From: Bacteroidia bacterium | GTDB lineage: Bacteria; Bacteroidota; Bacteroidia; J057 | Length of the DNA: 64,000 nucleotides | Direction: 5' to 3' | Assembly (NCBI GenBank): GCA_030430205.1 | Contig: JAUIGE010000014.1 | Location: 62,001-126,000 of the forward strand | Shown here: piece after piece, positions 56,534 to 63,950 of the stretch | Numbering within the stretch: position 1 is the first letter of the stretch | How the letters are laid out: every line of letters starts with the position of its first letter | The notes under the pieces: model-generated | The model's database searches: none | What the model saw: only the letters and a program-made list of their open reading frames with translations | Told to the model about the DNA's origin: nothing | Made by a program: the position numbers and the translations under genes

Positions 56534-59500
56534 TCAGGCAGATAATCCCTCCATATCCGACAACATGTCCAGCAGATTGTACCGAATGCGGTTCAGAGAA
56601 AGCTGCTCATCCTGATTGGAGATAATCCCTTTGCGGGATTCGTTTTTGGTGCGGTTGTACCTGCTTTCCAGCAGGATGATGTCATTTTCGAGTTCGGGAT
56701 TTACTTTTTTCAACATAGTGCGCGTCATGTCGATGGCCTTTTGCAGTTCGTCTTTGGCGACCATCTGCCGGATATCATCCACCGAAAAGCCTGGCTCGTC
56801 GTCCGGGGCAGAGCTTTCAGACGCGCTGTCTTCCTCTTTTGCAAAAAGATCATCATACTCCCTGCGGTCCCGCTGCTCCAGAAATTTTGCCAGGTCGAGC
56901 AGGTTCAGCTCAAAGGTACCAGCCTCGCTGATGTCATTGAGCTGGAGGTTGAAGCGGTTGAAGAGAAATTGTTCGATTTCGCCTTTGGTCGTGAAGACCT
57001 TTTTCAAGCTGTCATGCAGATCATGGAAGAATTCTCCGAGAAGGGCTTTTTCATCTATTTCATTTAGAAATACTTCAAAATCACGACGCTTGATCTCATT
57101 TTGATCTCCATTTAGTGGTTTTTTCAGGTTTTGGTTTTTGAAACGAAAAGGTCTGGGAATGTCCATTTGAAAAAAGGCCTCTCCCTTTTCTTCCTTTTCC
57201 ATTTCCCTGAAAAAACTTTTTTTACCCAAACGACTTTCCAGGATGAGATGCAGGATGATTCGCTCATGGTTCCACAAAAAAACAGGACTGGGGTGTTTTT
57301 GATGGATTACGGAAGCTTCTTCAATCGCTTTCAGCGCCTTCGGATAATCGCGCTGAGCCTCATAGACCCGAGCCTCCAATATCCGGGACCTGAGGTCGGG
57401 TGGCCACAGACTTCGGATGTTGGCGAGCTGCCTGCTTAGCTCTCTGTCATTGCCCAGACGAAAATGCATTTTCGCTTCATGGTACATCAGGCTGCTCGGT
57501 TCTGTCCGCTGCGGATAGCGGGCGAGAAGTTTGGCGATTTCCTGCAGGCTCAGCTCATCCCCTTCTTCTATTGTTTTATCTATTTGAAGGGAAAGGTAAA
57601 ATTCCAACTCCCGCGCAGGCGCTTTTTCCATCACATCTCCCGCCACGGTGATGCCCAGGCGGGTCGCAAGTGCCATATAGATGGCCAGTGGCAATTCTGT
57701 GAGCGATGACTCAAGATAAGGTCGCATATCTTCCTGGAAATACTGATCAATCAGATAGGGACTTTCTTCCAGTTTGAGCCTGTGATACAGGTACTCCGCC
57801 CGATCCTCGGGCGTCTTTGCCCCTTCATAAAATGCGATGGCATTTTCATGGATAAGCTTCGCTTTTTCCCTATCCTCCTGCACGATCAGCTCATAGAGCG
57901 CTACGCGCAAATCCTGCCTGAAAGTCAGGCTGCCATGGCTCTCACTCAGCAGAAAAGTCTCTTTCTGCAAGCGCTCATAAATGGCTTCCGCCTGCAAGGC
58001 ATTGATCTCACCCAGGCTACAGGGGCCTGCCAGCACATGCTGTATGACAGCGGGATTGATCTTGCGAACCAGCATGCCGGGCACGGCCATTTTGCGCACT
58101 TCCTCATCATGGATATGATCCAGGTTGCGGCGCACCAGCTGGCCCTGTATGCGTTTTTCGTCTATGCGCGAAAAAAGGTGGCGGGTCTGCACGCCGCCAA
58201 TTCCCTCACCATCAGCGTCATTCTGCTTCACGACTTCTGCCGCCAGCTGCAAGGTGAGCGGATTCCCCCCGAGTTTGCGGGCGATCTGCGCGGCAAGGGC
58301 ATCGTCTTTCACGCCCTTGGCTTTGAGGTAGCCCCGTGCAGCCTGCTCATCGAAAGTGGTGAGGTGCATTTTCTCAAATTTGAGAGAGGTAGCCACCAGG
58401 TCTGAGCGCCCCACCACAATGGGGCGGAAGCGCGGCACTGCCTCGCCGACCTCCTGTAAAAATTGAAAGAGGTTGTTCAATTCGGAGAAGGTCGCCCGAT
58501 ACTGAGCTTCCTCAAAGGAATCCAGCACCAGCAAAACAGGGATGTCAATTCTGCTGAGATCTTCCTCAAAACGGGAGAGGTATTGGCGATGAATCGCTTC
58601 CAGGATGATCCCCCGCGAAGAGCCCCGGGACTTGGTCTTTGCGCCTCTGTCTGCACGGCTTTCACCTGTCTCCAGGTAGGTGAGGATGTCATAGCGAATA
58701 TCGTCAAAGAGGCCCGCATGTTGCGGAAACTGTATTTTCAATTGGTGAAGGCCTTCAGCGGCGAGCTGCAAGGGCTCGGAGATGGAGAGGCCGGGCCTGT
58801 CAAAATCGAGGTAAATGAAGGGGATTTTGCGGGCAACATCCTGCTCTGCATGTTGCAAAATGAATTTTGCGATGAGGGTGGATTTGCCGATGCCGCCGAT
58901 GCCGGAGAGCAGCAGGGGCGGCTTCTCGCGCCAGTTGATGACCTGGCGAAAAAGCTTTTCGGCTTTGCCGATCAGGGTGCGCTGCGGCAGCCAGTCGATG
59001 TACTTGGTGATGCGGTCGAGTTCGCTGGCGCGTCCCTGGAAGTTTTCTGTCAGCTTGCGGAAAGGGCGCAGCAGTTCTTCGCGCTTGATGAGGCTGTTGA
59101 TTTCTTCTTTGTCGGGGAGCGACAAATCCGTGACGGAAAGCCATTCCACCAGCCGGTAAATCAGCACGAGCTGTGAGAGATCCTGCTTGCTCAGCTCCGG
59201 CATGTTGCCGTTTATCATGCTTTCATAAAGCCGCTGGCTGTCATCTGAAGGCCTGGCCTTGCGTTTTTGGAGTGTAGGCAAAAGCAGCTTTTGCGAAGAG
59301 AGGAAAGCCAGGCTTTCCTGGCGCTGGTGGTCTCTCAGGCTGTAAAGGCCTGTTTTCTTATTCTGGAAGCATTTTTCCAGTAAAAAAGCGACATCCTCTT
59401 CCTCCATTTTGTAGCCCAAAACAGCCTGCGTTTCCGCGACTATATCTTCTATGCGAAACTGAATCTGCAGCGCTGCCAGGCCCAGAAAAGGCTTTTCCGG

Positions 59501-59572
59501 GCGTTTTTCTTTGGATTCGTTCAGGATGTCCTGAATCAACTGGTCCAGATCTATTTTTTCTTGTTCCATCAT
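56534..59572 (-). CDS. STAND-type NTPase with N-terminal regulatory region and C-terminal TPR-like helices
   Basis: 1012 aa. Residues 1-175 are helical and unassigned. The NTPase core begins NFQGRASELDRITKYID (177-193), with Walker A GIGGIGKST (224-232) and Walker B PVLLVLDSFEEAQ (Asp351 followed by acidic residues). An AAA-lid and winged-helix region follow (RKLGGNPLTLQLAAEVV), and then TPR-like helices (about 680-800: FRLGNDRELSRQLANIR, AQRDYPKALKAIEEASVI). STAND proteins switch from a closed ADP state to an oligomer when the C-terminal sensor binds a signal. This gene is 5 bases after the degenerate ATPase gene and about 1.3 kb after the effector-associated-domain trypsin, forming a likely conflict cassette. 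Confidence 0.85.
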   Translation of the reverse strand: MMEQEKIDLDQLIQDILNESKEKRPEKPFLGLAALQIQFRIEDIVAETQAVLGYKMEEEDVAFLLEKCFQNKKTGLYSLRDHQRQESLAFLSSQKLLLPTLQKRKARPSDDSQRLYESMINGNMPELSKQDLSQLVLIYRLVEWLSVTDLSLPDKEEINSLIKREELLRPFRKLTENFQGRASELDRITKYIDWLPQRTLIGKAEKLFRQVINWREKPPLLLSGIGGIGKSTLIAKFILQHAEQDVARKIPFIYLDFDRPGLSISEPLQLAAEGLHQLKIQFPQHAGLFDDIRYDILTYLETGESRADRGAKTKSRGSSRGIILEAIHRQYLSRFEEDLSRIDIPVLLVLDSFEEAQYRATFSELNNLFQFLQEVGEAVPRFRPIVVGRSDLVATSLKFEKMHLTTFDEQAARGYLKAKGVKDDALAAQIARKLGGNPLTLQLAAEVVKQNDADGEGIGGVQTRHLFSRIDEKRIQGQLVRRNLDHIHDEEVRKMAVPGMLVRKINPAVIQHVLAGPCSLGEINALQAEAIYERLQKETFLLSESHGSLTFRQDLRVALYELIVQEDREKAKLIHENAIAFYEGAKTPEDRAEYLYHRLKLEESPYLIDQYFQEDMRPYLESSLTELPLAIYMALATRLGITVAGDVMEKAPARELEFYLSLQIDKTIEEGDELSLQEIAKLLARYPQRTEPSSLMYHEAKMHFRLGNDRELSRQLANIRSLWPPDLRSRILEARVYEAQRDYPKALKAIEEASVIHQKHPSPVFLWNHERIILHLILESRLGKKSFFREMEKEEKGEAFFQMDIPRPFRFKNQNLKKPLNGDQNEIKRRDFEVFLNEIDEKALLGEFFHDLHDSLKKVFTTKGEIEQFLFNRFNLQLNDISEAGTFELNLLDLAKFLEQRDRREYDDLFAKEEDSASESSAPDDEPGFSVDDIRQMVAKDELQKAIDMTRTMLKKVNPELENDIILLESRYNRTKNESRKGIISNQDEQLSLNRIRYNLLDMLSDMEGLSA

Positions 59573-59577
59573 CTTCT

Positions 59578-60714
59578 TCAGAATTCGCTTTCAATGATTT
59601 TTTTTGTCAGCTTCTGCCGCACGCCTTTATACAGTTTTTCTGCATTATCGCCCACCTTTTCCACATTTTCATCATTATCTACAAAAAGCAACATGCCTTT
59701 GGTGACAAATGCATCTTCCGGCTCCAGCCAATCCTGGTAGCGGGGATCTTCAGCCATGATAGAAGCGTGGAGCTTGGATAAAAACTGCCGAAAGCCCTCT
59801 TCATCAAATGCAGAGAGGGTATTTTCCTCAAAAGGAATATTGGCCGTATTGAGTTGCTCTATGCCTTCTTTTCGGTAGCCTGCCAGCAGCAAAAAACCCG
59901 GCGCATTTTCTATGGTGAGTTTTCCGGCAAGGCCGGTGATAAAGTCAAAGACCTGATCTGAAACCGTTTTGTCAAAGTGGTCTATAAAAAATAAAAATAC
60001 CTGGCCTTTTTCTTCCAAATGCACCTTCAGGCTCGTCAGAAAGGACTGATATTTAAAGTCTTTGCCGAGCTTCACATCCAGCTCGCGATAATGCGGGGCC
60101 ATGCCCAGAGCGATCGCCAGGTGCTTGGCGATGTGTACCGGAAAGACCATTTCGTCTTCATTTCGTTCCAAATCCTCCCTCAGATCAATTTTTTCAAAAG
60201 TAAAAATCCTGGATTCCGTGGCCAGGTGGCTGAAATAATTTTTCAGGTAGGACAGGCCCGAGCGGGATTTGCCATGCAAAATCAGCACCTCAGAACGCTG
60301 CCCATGCAGCATCTGGTAAAAGTAAAATTTGGTTTCCCTCCGATTGATAAAAAGCTTATTCCTTTTCTGTACCAGGACATGGTCAAAAAGGGATTTTTTG
60401 AGCTGGAAATCGCCATTGGCGCTCTGCTCTACGACCTCATTGAATCGCTGAAACAAGCGCTTCACCGCATCATTCAGCGGAAATTGCTGGTGATAGGTCA
60501 TCACAAAATAGGGCAGGCTTCCCCGCACATTGAGGGCTTGCAGGAAATGCCATTTCCCATCTTCAAATGCGGTAGTAGGCGCATTGACTTCGTTGTATCC
60601 GACCTGCAATTGGGCGGCATCCATCATGCCGATAAATGCCATGAATGGCCCGGGATCGGGATGGGTTTGCAGCAGGGCTGCTTTGAGTTCGAGGAGGAGG
60701 TCGTGGGGTATCAT
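59578..60714 (-). CDS. degenerate P-loop ATPase of the trypsin-STAND cassette
   Basis: 378 aa. An N-terminal helical region of about 95 residues (ELKAALLQTHPDPGPFMAFI) may be an effector-associated domain. The P-loop-like motif GKSRSGLS (148-155) matches the Walker A glycine spacing but has Leu where Lys is required. The Walker B position is VFLFFIDHFDK with Asp245. The overall order resembles the NTPase of a STAND or AAA protein that may be inactive and serve as an adaptor. Its start lies 11 bases from heptamer array E, and the STAND gene follows 5 bases after its stop. Confidence 0.7.
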   Translation of the reverse strand: MIPHDLLLELKAALLQTHPDPGPFMAFIGMMDAAQLQVGYNEVNAPTTAFEDGKWHFLQALNVRGSLPYFVMTYHQQFPLNDAVKRLFQRFNEVVEQSANGDFQLKKSLFDHVLVQKRNKLFINRRETKFYFYQMLHGQRSEVLILHGKSRSGLSYLKNYFSHLATESRIFTFEKIDLREDLERNEDEMVFPVHIAKHLAIALGMAPHYRELDVKLGKDFKYQSFLTSLKVHLEEKGQVFLFFIDHFDKTVSDQVFDFITGLAGKLTIENAPGFLLLAGYRKEGIEQLNTANIPFEENTLSAFDEEGFRQFLSKLHASIMAEDPRYQDWLEPEDAFVTKGMLLFVDNDENVEKVGDNAEKLYKGVRQKLTKKIIESEF

Positions 60715-60725
60715 GGGGAAGGTGG

Positions 60726-60802
60726 TTTGGGGTTTCGGGTTTTGAGTTTTGGGTTTCGAGTTTTGGGTTTCGGGTTTCGGGTTTTGGGTTTTGAGTTTTG
60801 GG
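60726..60802. repeat. heptamer array E (TTTCGGG/TTTTGGG/TTTTGAG), 11 units
   Basis: Eleven 7-bp steps from 60726 to 60802, units TTTGGGG, TTTCGGG, TTTTGAG, TTTTGGG and TTTCGAG. It starts 12 bases upstream of the minus-strand start codon at 60714, so on that strand the leader RNA is CCCAAAA/CTCAAAA-rich. Array C also has 11 units. Confidence 0.9.
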
Positions 60803-60810
60803 GGGGAGTG

Positions 60811-60892
60811 GACGCAGATTAGTTATGATTATTATGATAAAGATTATGTTTAAATACAGCGAAAATCATAATGATCATAATAAATCTGCGTC
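60811..60892. repeat. intact GACGCAGAT palindrome
   Basis: Two 28-base arms (GACGCAGATT..TTATGAT..ATTATGAT) differ at three positions and enclose a core TTTAAATACAGCGAAA shared with the palindrome at 12858. A second copy, interrupted by a MITE-like insertion, is at 62053-62416. Confidence 0.7.
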
Positions 60893-60905
60893 AATTCTTC
60901 CTCTT

Positions 60906-62009
60906 CTAAAGCGTAATTCCCTTCAATTTCAAATCATCAGCAATCCGCCGAGCCACAACCCCCTGGTTGTACTTCGGATTCCAGTTGGGGTCGCCCATAT
61001 TGTGCAGGGCGATCCACTCAAATTTTTCATTGAAGCAAGGCGAGCCTGAGGAGCCCTTGAGGGTATTGACTTTATATCGCAAGCGGATTTTTTTGCTGTC
61101 GGTGCCTTCGCTTTGGCTGAAGCCAAAGGCTACTTTCTGGGGGCTGCCTTCGGGATGTTGCACGATGATGATGTGCCCGGCTTTGAAGAGCTGTGCCGGG
61201 GAATCCGGCAGCTTGATCCAGCCGCGCGTCGCGGCGCCCATGGGCGTACCGCCCGGCATGGGGCCAAAGGCCTCCTCCCCTATCGGGCGCGCCAGGCGCA
61301 GCAGCGCATAGTCCAGCCTGTCCTGCGGCCAGGCGATATCCAGCTCATCAGAGCCCTGCACATCCCAATCGCTGTATTTGCTGCTGGCCAGCAAGGCATC
61401 ATCGGCCAGGCCGACGCGCAGGCCCGCATGGATGCTGCTGCCATCAGGCAGCACTTTGTAATCAAACAGGCAGTTGATTGTCGTCACGCTTTGGGGAGCC
61501 TTGATCCAGGCTTCCACCACATGGTAATTTGTCAACAACAAATCCGGCCCCACCAGGAAGCCTGTTCCCCAGGCAGAGCCTGTGTCTCTTTCCACCTCGA
61601 TGCGGCAGACGCATCTTTCGATTTTGGCCATTTCGCGCAGCATGACTGCGATATCCATAAAGGGATTGGCGTTGACGAGCTGCTGTAAGGCGCTCATATC
61701 CAGGGAAGTGGCTTCTTTCTCCTGGTAGCCCTGGCTACCGATGCCCAGGGTATATGCCAGTTTGAGGACGGCCTCATGATCGGGATGCTCCGCCAAAAAG
61801 GCGTCTATCAGCTGGCCTTGCCAGCCCTGCTGGTTGGCAGCTTTGACAAACTCAAAGGTCTGCACCGTGAAAGGCGAAAGAAAAGACACATGGCTCAGGA
61901 ACTTTTTATCCAGCCTGATTTCCGTAAATGGCCGGATCGTCATGATGTCATAATGATCCTCGAGTGCGGTTTTGAGTATGCCTTTTTCAGGTCCGGTGAG
62001 TTGTCGCAT
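60906..62009 (-). CDS. effector-associated-domain trypsin-like serine protease
   Basis: 367 aa. Residues 1-90 fit effector-associated domain 1 (LTGPEKGILKTALEDHY; FEFVKAANQQGWQGQLIDAF; AEHPDHEAVLKLAYTLGI), an adaptor domain that lets an effector join an NTPase or other receptor. From about 135 comes a trypsin-like peptidase with the triad His163 (LLTNYHVV), Asp233 (DRLDYALLRL) and Ser321 (KGSSGSPCF, the S of G-x-S-G). No signal peptide is present, so it is cytoplasmic. The triad is intact, so it should be active. The degenerate ATPase and STAND genes lie downstream on the same strand, with array E and a palindrome between. Confidence 0.9.
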   Translation of the reverse strand: MRQLTGPEKGILKTALEDHYDIMTIRPFTEIRLDKKFLSHVSFLSPFTVQTFEFVKAANQQGWQGQLIDAFLAEHPDHEAVLKLAYTLGIGSQGYQEKEATSLDMSALQQLVNANPFMDIAVMLREMAKIERCVCRIEVERDTGSAWGTGFLVGPDLLLTNYHVVEAWIKAPQSVTTINCLFDYKVLPDGSSIHAGLRVGLADDALLASSKYSDWDVQGSDELDIAWPQDRLDYALLRLARPIGEEAFGPMPGGTPMGAATRGWIKLPDSPAQLFKAGHIIIVQHPEGSPQKVAFGFSQSEGTDSKKIRLRYKVNTLKGSSGSPCFNEKFEWIALHNMGDPNWNPKYNQGVVARRIADDLKLKGITL

Positions 62010-62809: not shown

Positions 62810-63718
62810 TTAGAGGGCTTCTATCTCTGATTGGGAGAGAGAGGTATATTTTGCAATTACTTCAATAGATTGACCATCTTCCTTCATGGCTTTGGCCATG
62901 GTTAACGCTTTTTGGTATGCGCCCTGTTCTTTACCTTGCTCAATGCCTTGCTCAATGCCTTGCTCAATGCCTTGCTCAAATCCATCCTCATATCCCTCTT
63001 CAAAATATGTATCCATAGAGCTTTTCAAGTCACGGTAATCCTTCAAACTATCCTCATAAGCGACTCGTTCCTTTTTATCGAATCTGGCGATTTCAGCAAG
63101 TTCAAAAAGGCGCAAGAATATTCTTTCCTGCAATCTTTCAGGGACACGGTCCAGCCGATGCAGGTTTTTAAGCAAAAACATCCATTTATCATGATGGCTT
63201 GCGAGTTCATCTACTGATTTTGAAAACTTGGGGATTTCCAGGAAAATAAAGGTCAGTTTATCATAAAAAACTTCCAGGGTTTCTGTTTCCATCAATTGGA
63301 CATGATGGCTTACTTTATCGGCATATTCTTTTCTTTCATCGAAAGTGAAATCCATAATACCGATGGTATAAACCCCTTTCAATTCATATTGCCACTCCTT
63401 GCCGCGCAGTGCCTGTTCCTGAATAGCAAAGGTTGAATAATACAGACTTCTGTCTTTGAAGAATTTTTGTTTTACCCGTTGAACTTCAACAATGAATTTT
63501 TCCCCCTTTTCATTCTCACAATATAAATCAAAAACAGCTTTTCGGTCGATCTCACTCTGGCCTGCGTGCTCGTTTTTTAAATAAGTCAAATCTTTGATTT
63601 CTTCCTTTCCCTTCAATAATTCATTCAGAAAGTCAATCATTAAATCTTTATTGACTTCCTCGCCAAAGATTTTCTTAAAACCAAAGTCTGTGAATAAATT
63701 GATATATCTTTCGGACAT
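62810..63718 (-). CDS. Rpn family recombination-promoting nuclease/putative transposase
   Basis: 302 aa from the ATG at 63718; the frame is open upstream but the family begins at MSERYINLFTDFGFKKIFGE. The PD-(D/E)XK-like nuclease core shows Asp64 in KAVFDLYCENEKGE and Glu78-x-Gln80 in FIVEVQR, the E-x-Q variant usual in Rpn proteins. The C-terminal half is helical and ends in a tandem GIEQ repeat (YEDGFEQGIEQGIEQGIEQG, residues about 277-300), also typical of the family. Rpn proteins make DNA double-strand breaks and promote recombination in known members. The gene lies beside a cluster of palindromic elements, a setting often seen for these genes. Confidence 0.92.
   Translation of the reverse strand: MSERYINLFTDFGFKKIFGEEVNKDLMIDFLNELLKGKEEIKDLTYLKNEHAGQSEIDRKAVFDLYCENEKGEKFIVEVQRVKQKFFKDRSLYYSTFAIQEQALRGKEWQYELKGVYTIGIMDFTFDERKEYADKVSHHVQLMETETLEVFYDKLTFIFLEIPKFSKSVDELASHHDKWMFLLKNLHRLDRVPERLQERIFLRLFELAEIARFDKKERVAYEDSLKDYRDLKSSMDTYFEEGYEDGFEQGIEQGIEQGIEQGKEQGAYQKALTMAKAMKEDGQSIEVIAKYTSLSQSEIEAL
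62934..62981. repeat. 12-bp tandem repeat inside the Rpn gene
   Basis: CCTTGCTCAATG occurs three times in a row plus a fourth unit ending AAAT. It encodes the GIEQ repeat of the Rpn protein on the minus strand. Copy number can change by slippage without loss of frame. Confidence 0.85.
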
Positions 63719-63950
63719 AAAGCAGTCGTTTTTTCTTTCAAATTTAAGAAAAAATCGGCATCCTTCATATTGTCTCAAAGTGGTTGACACTTTCGCCACA
63801 AAAGAAATAAGCCACAGCTTACACACATAGAAGAAAAAGAGGTGTGATGAGCGATATGATCTGTGAAAATCGGTGTAATTTGTAGCAATTTCTAACCCAT
63901 TTCTGACAGAATTTCCCTAACTTCACTTAGCCCATCAACCCTCAAGGCTT
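63719..63950. other. intergenic region with a repeat-like motif
   Basis: Holds AAAAGAAATAAGCCACAGCTTA (63801-63822), nearly the same as 1403-1425, and a loose inverted repeat (CACAGCTTACACAC with GTGTGATGAG..GATCTGTG). Nothing else is recognised. Confidence 0.4.

What the first reader, a model, noticed from the sequence alone, without database searches (positions are those of the whole stretch)
56534..62009. Candidate conflict system: effector-associated-domain trypsin, degenerate P-loop ATPase and STAND-TPR NTPase
Three minus-strand genes form one cassette. The first encodes an effector-associated-domain-1-like domain fused to an intact trypsin triad (His163, Asp233, Ser321). The second has a P-loop in which the essential Lys is Leu (GKSRSGLS). 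The third is a 1012-residue STAND NTPase with intact Walker A/B and TPR-like C-terminus, 5 bases after the second. The combination of effector-associated domain, peptidase and STAND is known from NTPase-regulated biological conflict systems in multicellular-type bacteria. A pseudo-ATPase as middle partner is unusual and could be an adaptor between receptor and protease. Such a system may trigger cell death or phage defence.
Basis: partly seen in the sequence, partly recalled or inferred. Interest (0 to 1): 0.78.

Follow-up and report, generated by a model that had tools for sequence, protein, structure and literature searches.

The report
Three-gene alarm-and-protease immune cassette
This is a rare three-gene bacterial module, related to the CARD-NLR (inflammasome-like) defence systems, in which a sensor ATPase probably switches on a protein-cutting enzyme through small adaptor domains, but which carries no recognisable killer gene of its own and so probably borrows one from elsewhere in the genome.

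Summary
In detail: A, an EAD1-trypsin with intact triad; B, a P-loop protein whose Walker A lysine is Leu154; C, a STAND NTPase with intact Walker motifs. The operon recurs, in other surroundings, in one other genome of the family, and in no other of the 198 relatives searched. In 10 of 10 further loci read (8 plasmid loci, G005, G543) a trypsin plus a P-loop domain, often fused, precede C. That is the layout of the published CARD-NLR family (LypABC of Caulobacter), whose LypA also has an ATPase domain without Walker residues, so the pseudo-ATPase is ordinary there. Unusual here: LypA is split into two genes; EAD1 stands in the CARD position of A, and B has a divergent EAD1-like domain; C ends in EAD1-like plus EAD11; no effector was recognised in the operon. 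A LypC-type endonuclease is encoded elsewhere in both carrier genomes and in none of the 11 other family genomes searched, so an effector in trans is plausible but unproven. A new variant of a known kind; protease-triggered cell death or phage defence is inferred, not tested.

The parts
60906..62009 (-). Gene A: EAD1-trypsin, 367 aa, His163/Asp233/Ser321
61752..62003 (-). EAD1 domain of A (residues 3-86); the only place over the EAD1 cut-off in the genome search
61005..61568 (-). Trypsin_2 peptidase domain of A (residues 148-335); nearest solved relatives by sequence are V8/glutamyl endopeptidases
59578..60714 (-). Gene B: degenerate P-loop protein, 378 aa
60430..60714 (-). Divergent EAD1-like domain at the N-terminus of B (about residues 1-95)
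   Evidence: hhalign score 26.6, best of 200 column shuffles 18.9; not found by Pfam
60250..60273 (-). Degenerate Walker A of B, residues 148-155 (GKSRSGLS, Lys to Leu154; Ser155-Tyr156 kept)
56534..59572 (-). Gene C: STAND NTPase, 1012 aa (LypB-like)
59048..59572 (-). N-terminal domain of C (residues 1-175), weakly alike across the family
   Evidence: score 26.6, best of 100 shuffles 16.9, but 14% probability, and two of four subgroups alone did not match
58880..58903 (-). Walker A of C, GIGGIGKS, K230
56858..57049 (-). EAD1-like domain of C (about residues 842-905)
   Evidence: score 34.9, best of 200 shuffles 16.2; separate helical bundle in the AF2 model; not found by Pfam
56549..56779 (-). 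EAD11 domain of C (residues 932-1008)
60806..60897 (.). Inverted repeat (33-nt arms) in the A-B gap, next to a GGGTTT-type repeat at 60711-60808; G005 has no such gap, its A stop and B start overlap

Best explanation
The cassette is an EAD-type, split variant of the CARD-NLR (LypAB-like) protease-activating immune module. SHOWN by sequence: A is an EAD1-peptidase, B a P-loop domain without the Walker lysine that in relatives is fused to the peptidase, C a STAND switch of the family that follows such peptidases; EAD1-type domains are clear on A and divergent on B and C; C also has EAD11; no nuclease, subtilase, second trypsin or gasdermin was recognised in the flanking genes scanned. INFERRED: that A+B and C equal LypA and LypB (by described layout); that C senses invasion or stress and assembles with ATP; that A and B gather on it through EAD1 and N-terminal-domain contacts; that B is a non-hydrolysing scaffold or nucleotide-sensing partner; that clustered A is switched on and cuts a pro-effector supplied in trans. 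The best single candidate substrate is the unlinked LypC-type endonuclease of the same genome (C23:171675-172625; about 35% likely); EAD11 proteins (TIR, CHAT) may be gathered by the EAD11 tail. The outcome would be cell death or growth arrest that stops a phage.
For: Gene order kept in G005 with different flanks. C homologues follow a trypsin gene plus P-loop domain in 8 of 8 plasmid loci read, and in G543. Fused trypsin-P-loop proteins (601-690 aa; the annotated 486-aa Ruegeria protein starts inside its peptidase domain), C and trypsin-endonuclease match the LypA/LypB/LypC layout: the Paraburkholderia trypsin-endonuclease is 662 aa with DRGH His470, the LypC endonuclease domain ends at 662 with H471. 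The P-loop domain of B aligns with the Paracoccus/Caulobacter B (score 45-51, best of 100 shuffles 21). EAD1 profile on A, B, C: 0 of 200 shuffles reach each score; 22 negative windows reach at most 15.0. EAD1 over the cut-off occurs in 2 of 198 relatives, the two cassette carriers. Endonuclease: of 13 family genomes (G000-G012) only G000 and G005 have it at E 1e-10; it is nearer to cassette-linked nucleases than to the genome's other nuclease.
Against: EAD1 on B and C is missed by Pfam, and direct comparisons are weak (A-B P 0.004, A-C 0.25, B-C 0.19). The N-terminus of the Caulobacter B shows no EAD1. CARD position versus EAD1 is unresolved. The N-terminal domain of C is only weakly shared. 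In LypABC endonuclease residues were dispensable for lysis, which weakens the endonuclease as killer; a trypsin-endonuclease also sits beside an unrelated TrwB/HerA-like gene in G152. The co-occurrence rests on two genomes and was looked for after linked nucleases were seen. The 191-base insertion could uncouple A from B. AF2 of B was too poor to use (pLDDT 45).
Confidence: 0.7

Rival explanations
1. A self-contained EAD conflict core (Kaur et al. type) whose effector is the trypsin itself: activated A degrades host or phage proteins directly.
For: No effector recognised beside the genes in the window, G005 or Paracoccus SMMA_5_TC; A has an intact triad; EAD1-peptidases are described in EAD systems (PMC7159879, passages).
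Against: Seven of seven related loci without a detected EAD1 carry an added nuclease, subtilase or second trypsin, and nuclease-protease systems described in print act by cutting a pro-nuclease.
Confidence: 0.2
2. C drives EAD11 effectors (TIR, CHAT, others) by homotypic EAD11 contact, and the trypsin is a regulator that releases or silences them.
For: Ten EAD11 places in the genome, C's own included; others are fused to TIR (two), to CHAT, to a response-regulator protein beside a caspase-iSTAND, and one lies in a type III CRISPR operon. EADs are proposed as homotypic adaptors (PMC7159879).
Against: EAD11 also occurs in 6 of the 11 other family genomes, which lack the cassette, so it is not specific to it; the contact is untested.
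Confidence: 0.2
3. A domesticated lysis or development switch, as LypABC is for gene transfer agents, rather than a phage defence.
For: LypABC is needed for gene-transfer-agent release (PMC13236601).
Against: Patchy presence (2 of 22 genomes of the order) and different flanks suggest a mobile accessory cassette. Gene-transfer-agent genes were not looked for.
Confidence: 0.12
4. A decaying cassette: the repeat insertion between A and B and the lost lysine show loss of function.
For: 191-base gap with an inverted and a tandem repeat in the window; no gap in G005.
Against: All three frames are intact, the triad and the Walker motifs of C are kept, and the lysine is also lost in G005 and in 4 other loci.
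Confidence: 0.08

Closest known systems
CARD-NLR systems, LypABC of Caulobacter crescentus (PMC13236601: parts 1-2 of 15, section 9 and passages read)
   Same: Trypsin-like peptidase, an ATPase domain lacking Walker residues, and a separate STAND/NLR-like ATPase with an N-terminal domain, Gx4GKS and TPR-like repeats.
   Different: Here the LypA parts are two genes; EAD1 stands in the CARD position of A, and B has its own EAD1-like domain; the STAND ends in EAD1-like plus EAD11; no LypC, gasdermin or other effector recognised in the operon.
NucA-trypsin 'System 3' with STAND (Kaur et al. 2020, PMC7159879: passages read)
   Same: Trypsin, STAND, some EAD1 copies, NucA-type endonuclease as the likely output.
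   Different: No NucA in the operon here; a separate pseudo-ATPase gene; EAD11 on the STAND.
iSTAND / iSTAND2 MoxR-vWA ternary systems (PMC7159879 passages; PMC8195603 passages and section 15 read)
   Same: EAD1-trypsin beside an EAD-tagged inactive P-loop protein.
   Different: No MoxR or vWA among the flanking genes scanned; B does not match Pfam iSTAND, nor the part after EAD1 of the EAD1 protein in the Nostoc MoxR-vWA locus.
Nuclease-protease pairs in AVAST, Hachiman and others (PMC12799240: part 1 of 6 read)
   Same: Trypsin-like protease tied to a sensor ATPase; protease-activated nuclease as output.
   Different: Their nuclease is of the metallo-beta-lactamase fold and lies beside the protease gene; none was found here.

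Membership tests
CARD-NLR (LypABC-like) | Trypsin-like peptidase gene upstream of the STAND gene in one operon | tested here: met
   Window and G005, with B in between
CARD-NLR (LypABC-like) | ATPase domain without Walker lysine belonging to the peptidase component | tested here: met
   As separate gene B; it aligns with the Paracoccus/Caulobacter B and, with them, with the first fused group (97%); alone it scores 32-34 with that group and not at all with the Paraburkholderia group
CARD-NLR (LypABC-like) | STAND ATPase with own N-terminal domain, Gx4GKS, Walker B, repeats | tested here: met
   Walker motifs clear; N-terminal domain and repeats weak
CARD-NLR (LypABC-like) | CARD at the N-terminus of the peptidase | tested here: inconclusive
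   EAD1 sits there; CARD-position profile of relatives against EAD1 P 0.002
CARD-NLR (LypABC-like) | Effector (LypC, gasdermin, phospholipase, endonuclease) in the operon | tested here: not met
   Window flanks are beta-lactamase-like, CotH and PDDEXK_2; four G005 flanking genes are an outer-membrane barrel, a dehydrogenase, a Crp-like regulator and a glycosyltransferase
CARD-NLR (LypABC-like) | Place in the published CARD-NLR ATPase clade / DefenseFinder model | not tested
PADLOC 2023 gave only weak hits for C (mad8 E 5e-4, Avs2 0.025); A hit RT-Protease_XI (4e-6) and a 611-aa 'trypsin-like' model (1.6e-5), which also matches the fused G543 protein (6e-17)
CARD-NLR (LypABC-like) | Phage defence or lysis activity | not testable with these tools
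   needs an experiment
EAD conflict systems | Same EAD on a core component and on an effector/signalling enzyme | tested here: met
   EAD1 on A by Pfam; EAD1-like on B and C by profile only
MoxR-vWA iSTAND ternary system | MoxR and vWA genes beside it | tested here: not met
   three flanking genes of the window and four of G005 scanned, none is MoxR or vWA
iSTAND (PF19995) | B matches the iSTAND model | tested here: not met
   no match at E 1 for B, none at E 10 for G005 B; the model does find a protein of this genome
AVAST type 1 | Metallo-beta-lactamase-type nuclease beside a protease-STAND pair | tested here: not met
   Avs1b model E 0.007 over the peptidase only; no such nuclease among the flanking genes scanned

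The most novel reading that the evidence does not exclude
A dispersed, hub-and-spoke inflammasome: the EAD1-EAD11 tail of the STAND protein couples one protease module to the genome's pool of EAD11 proteins (TIR, CHAT, a caspase-iSTAND neighbourhood, a type III CRISPR operon) while the EAD1 protease activates an unlinked pro-nuclease, so that the effector repertoire of a CARD-NLR-like alarm is spread over the genome instead of being fixed in the operon.
Probability: 0.25. Interest if true: 0.75.

Novelty: new variant of a known kind. Interest (0 to 1): 0.52.

Why it matters
The LypABC paper says that the lytic effector downstream of LypABC is unknown (PMC13236601, Discussion passage). A variant with no recognised effector in cis, EAD1 in the CARD position and a co-occurring unlinked endonuclease gives a concrete, testable candidate for how such protease modules reach effectors in trans. 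It also joins two literatures that name similar parts differently (EAD/iSTAND and CARD-NLR), and it suggests that the Walker-less ATPase domain is a recurrent part rather than decay.

Tried and rejected
Reading B as a lone odd pseudo-ATPase: rejected, since a P-loop domain stands in that place in all 11 loci and the lysine is lost in 6. Reading B as iSTAND, or as the Nostoc EAD1 protein beside MoxR-vWA: no match. AF2 of B from two rows: pLDDT 45, not used. AF2 of the C tail: two helical bundles, mean pLDDT 68.5; Foldseek's best E was 1.0 and the second look gave only helical bundles, nearly all over the EAD11 half, so no Death-fold claim is made. Scans of genome contigs with B alone and with A1 gave no relative, nor did viral contigs with A1 and A2 or plasmids with B. 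Three weak phylum hits of B (E 0.001-0.008): two were read and judged chance, the third not read. In one search the EAD1 reference held one wrong row (Nos_E3, whose first residues are not EAD1); it was dropped and the test of A, B and C repeated with ten rows; the other N-termini (Caulobacter B and others) were not repeated. No solved CARD was among the hits of a fused Polaromonas protein or of a profile of six peptidases (60 of 69 rows shown). Wein et al. 2025 (Nature, CARD domains in gasdermin systems) is not held and is known only through PMC13236601.

Searches for print. One search (EAD11, effector-associated domain, EAD1-containing) listed 15 papers; PMC7159879 and PMC8195603 are on these systems, PMC10910872 and PMC12136450 hold the phrase once and were not read, the rest look unrelated by title. 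One search (CARD-NLR, LypABC; from 2023) listed one. I saw no paper describing an EAD1/EAD11 CARD-NLR variant; most subscription papers are not held.
Full report
1. What is there. Three minus-strand genes lie at 62009-56534. A (367 aa) is EAD1 plus Trypsin_2 with His163, Asp233, Ser321. B (378 aa) has no Pfam match but one chance-level hit. C (1012 aa) has an intact STAND core and a C-terminal EAD11 domain, 69 bits. B and C are 5 bases apart; A and B 191, the gap holding a tandem repeat and an inverted repeat with 33-nt arms.

2. Is it one unit? In a search of 198 relatives, own genome included, A and B occur in 2, own and G005, and full-length C in the same 2 (the other 6 genomes with a hit matched in or near the EAD11 region only, as did 3 further places in G000 and 1 in G005; one more place in G005 matched residues 178-238 of the STAND region). 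In the order it is 2 of 22 genomes. In G005 the genes stand in the same order, A stop and B start overlap (TGATG), B and C are again 5 bases apart, and the flanking genes differ. Identity is 68% (A), 48% (B), 47% (C). A phylum sample gave C in 2 of 395 genomes, own and G543.

3. Wider relatives. Plasmid records with C homologues: 18. I read 8 loci; the 10 records not read are a second Paracoccus record and nine Rhizobium records whose listing names a AAA ATPase and a trypsin-like gene under the match. In 8 of 8 loci a trypsin gene and a P-loop domain precede C; with G543 and G005 it is 10 of 10 besides the window. Split: Paracoccus SMMA_5_TC, Caulobacter rhizosphaerae, Hymenobacter. Fused: Polaromonas, Paraburkholderia, Paracoccus MA, Ruegeria, Rhizobium, G543. 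In the tree of C the window pair groups with Paracoccus SMMA_5_TC (93/95). In the tree of peptidases it groups with the EAD1-trypsins of Nostoc, Fischerella and a Bradyrhizobium peptidase (93/92), two of which, Nostoc and Fischerella, stand near MoxR-vWA type genes (for Fischerella by eye).

4. The P-loop domain of B. By profile it aligns with the Paracoccus/Caulobacter B (scores 45 and 51 in the two directions, best of 100 shuffles 21). Alone it scores 32-34 with the first fused group (best of 100 shuffles 22.7) and does not match the Paraburkholderia/Paracoccus MA group; those two fused groups match each other (90%). The four split rows together match the first fused group (97%) but not the second (6%). 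Walker A over 11 loci: canonical in 3 (Paracoccus SMMA_5_TC, Hymenobacter, G543), GKS kept with an altered loop in 2 (Rhizobium, Ruegeria), lysine lost in 6 (window Leu, G005 Thr, Caulobacter Arg, Polaromonas Arg, Paraburkholderia and Paracoccus MA eroded). The pair after the lysine position, Ser/Thr followed by Phe/Tyr/His, is kept in all nine rows aligned. In LypA a T356A/S360A/F361A triple mutant fails; that S155-Y156 of B correspond to S360-F361 is my inference, without the LypA sequence.

5. EAD domains. A: Pfam EAD1 just over the cut-off; it is the only place over the cut-off in the genome search, and EAD1 occurs in 2 of 198 relatives, the cassette carriers. (A TPR protein, L035:4290-6782, reaches 34.3 bits for EAD1 as a whole protein but with no stretch that passes alone; I take it as a repeat artefact.) Against a ten-row EAD1 profile: A 45.9, C residues 842-905 34.9, B residues 1-95 26.6; best of 200 column shuffles 19.0, 16.2 and 18.9; best of 22 negative windows 15.0; EAD11 of C 9.5. 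Probabilities by hhalign were 95, 86 and 42%. Against: Pfam does not find the B and C copies, direct comparisons A-B, A-C and B-C are weak (P 0.004, 0.25, 0.19), and the Caulobacter B shows no EAD1. For: in Paracoccus both A (42.6 bits) and B (50.7 bits) have clear EAD1 domains, 39% identical to each other. AF2 draws the C tail as two separate helical bundles.

6. What it is closest to. PMC13236601 (parts 1-2, section 9 and passages) describes LypABC: LypA is CARD, trypsin and an ATPase domain lacking Walker A/B residues; LypB an N-terminal domain, an Orc1-like AAA+ domain with Gx4GKS and TPR-like repeats; LypC trypsin plus endonuclease. My profile of C finds Cdc6/Orc1 chains first among solved structures. 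The Paraburkholderia operon (603, 1031 and 662 aa; DRGH His470) matches LypABC in layout. So the window cassette reads as a LypAB-type module in which LypA is two genes and EAD1 stands in the CARD position. Kaur et al. 2020 (PMC7159879, passages) describe similar parts as a NucA-trypsin system with STAND.

7. The missing effector. Seven loci have a peptidase without a detected EAD1 (Pfam; the Ruegeria protein lacks its N-terminus as annotated; a CARD-position profile of four of them gave P 0.002 with EAD1, so distant kinship is open). All seven carry an added peptidase or nuclease: Polaromonas endonuclease; Paraburkholderia trypsin-endonuclease; Paracoccus MA subtilase-like gene and trypsin-endonuclease (39 bits, DRGH motif not seen); Ruegeria and Rhizobium subtilase-trypsin; Hymenobacter second trypsin, in which no catalytic Ser motif was found; G543 second trypsin and endonuclease. 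In the four loci with EAD1 or an EAD1-like N-terminus (window, G005, Paracoccus SMMA_5_TC, Caulobacter, the last only 13.4 bits) I recognised none beside the genes: 0 of 4. Limits: two Paracoccus genes downstream (the second cut) and the gene before the Caulobacter trypsin have no Pfam match and could be effectors; Caulobacter has another EAD1-trypsin about 5 kb upstream. The pattern is post hoc.

8. A candidate in trans. The own genome has two Endonuclease_NS proteins. The C5 protein looks secreted from its first residues, by eye. The other (C23:171675-172625, 317 aa) shows no such start and is nearest to cassette-linked nucleases (39% to G543, 32% to Polaromonas, 30% to Paraburkholderia, against 26% to the C5 protein). 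A tree of 8 rows agrees, but with open forks and a very long C5 branch. Of 198 relatives 13 have a hit at E 1e-10, own included; the strong ones are G005 (54%, E 1e-103) and G152 (44%, E 2e-38, a trypsin-endonuclease fusion); none of the other 11 family genomes has one. Exact coincidence of 2 in 13 has chance 1/78, ignoring kinship. It lies on another contig from the cassette in both genomes, in different surroundings. In G152 the fusion stands beside a TrwB/HerA-like gene, and in LypABC endonuclease residues were dispensable, so this stays a candidate.

9. EAD11 network. Ten places over the cut-off in the genome, C's own included: two LRR-Roc-COR-EAD11-TIR proteins, EAD11-CHAT beside an NB-ARC-TPR protein, a response-regulator protein near a caspase-iSTAND, one in a type III CRISPR operon, and four others of unknown partner. 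C may join this pool through its tail; untested.

10. Verdict. A real, rare cassette kept in two genera of one family; a new variant of the CARD-NLR / EAD kind. The mechanism (STAND-gated protease activation, effector in trans) is inferred.

Noticed in passing
L041:5536-12281 (own genome, contig C31): An EAD11 protein (27.3 bits in the genome search, 25.4 with cut-off 26 in the protein scan) is encoded in a type III CRISPR operon: Cas10, a Csm4-type and two further RAMP proteins.
   Followed up: partly
L035:4290-7780 (own genome, contig C20): EAD11-CHAT protein directly before an NB-ARC-TPR protein; both share a similar GRDKI-RQINIGQGNYIE stretch.
   Followed up: no
L034:5997-9344 and L037:4756-8004 (own genome): Two LRR-Roc-COR-EAD11-TIR proteins with the same domain order.
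   Followed up: no
L036:6230-13025 (own genome, contig C17): Caspase-iSTAND (PF19995, 24.2 bits, cut-off 24) protein near a protein with response-regulator, LuxR-type and EAD11 domains.
   Followed up: no
window 60711-60897: GGGTTT-type tandem repeat and an inverted repeat with 33-nt arms between genes A and B; G005 has no gap there.
   Followed up: partly
window 62810-63826: PD-(D/E)XK family transposase (PDDEXK_2) upstream of the cassette; its tail repeats GIEQ.
   Followed up: no
L091:4710-10600 (G152): Trypsin-endonuclease fusion (LypC-like) beside a TrwB/HerA-like gene instead of a STAND cassette.
   Followed up: partly
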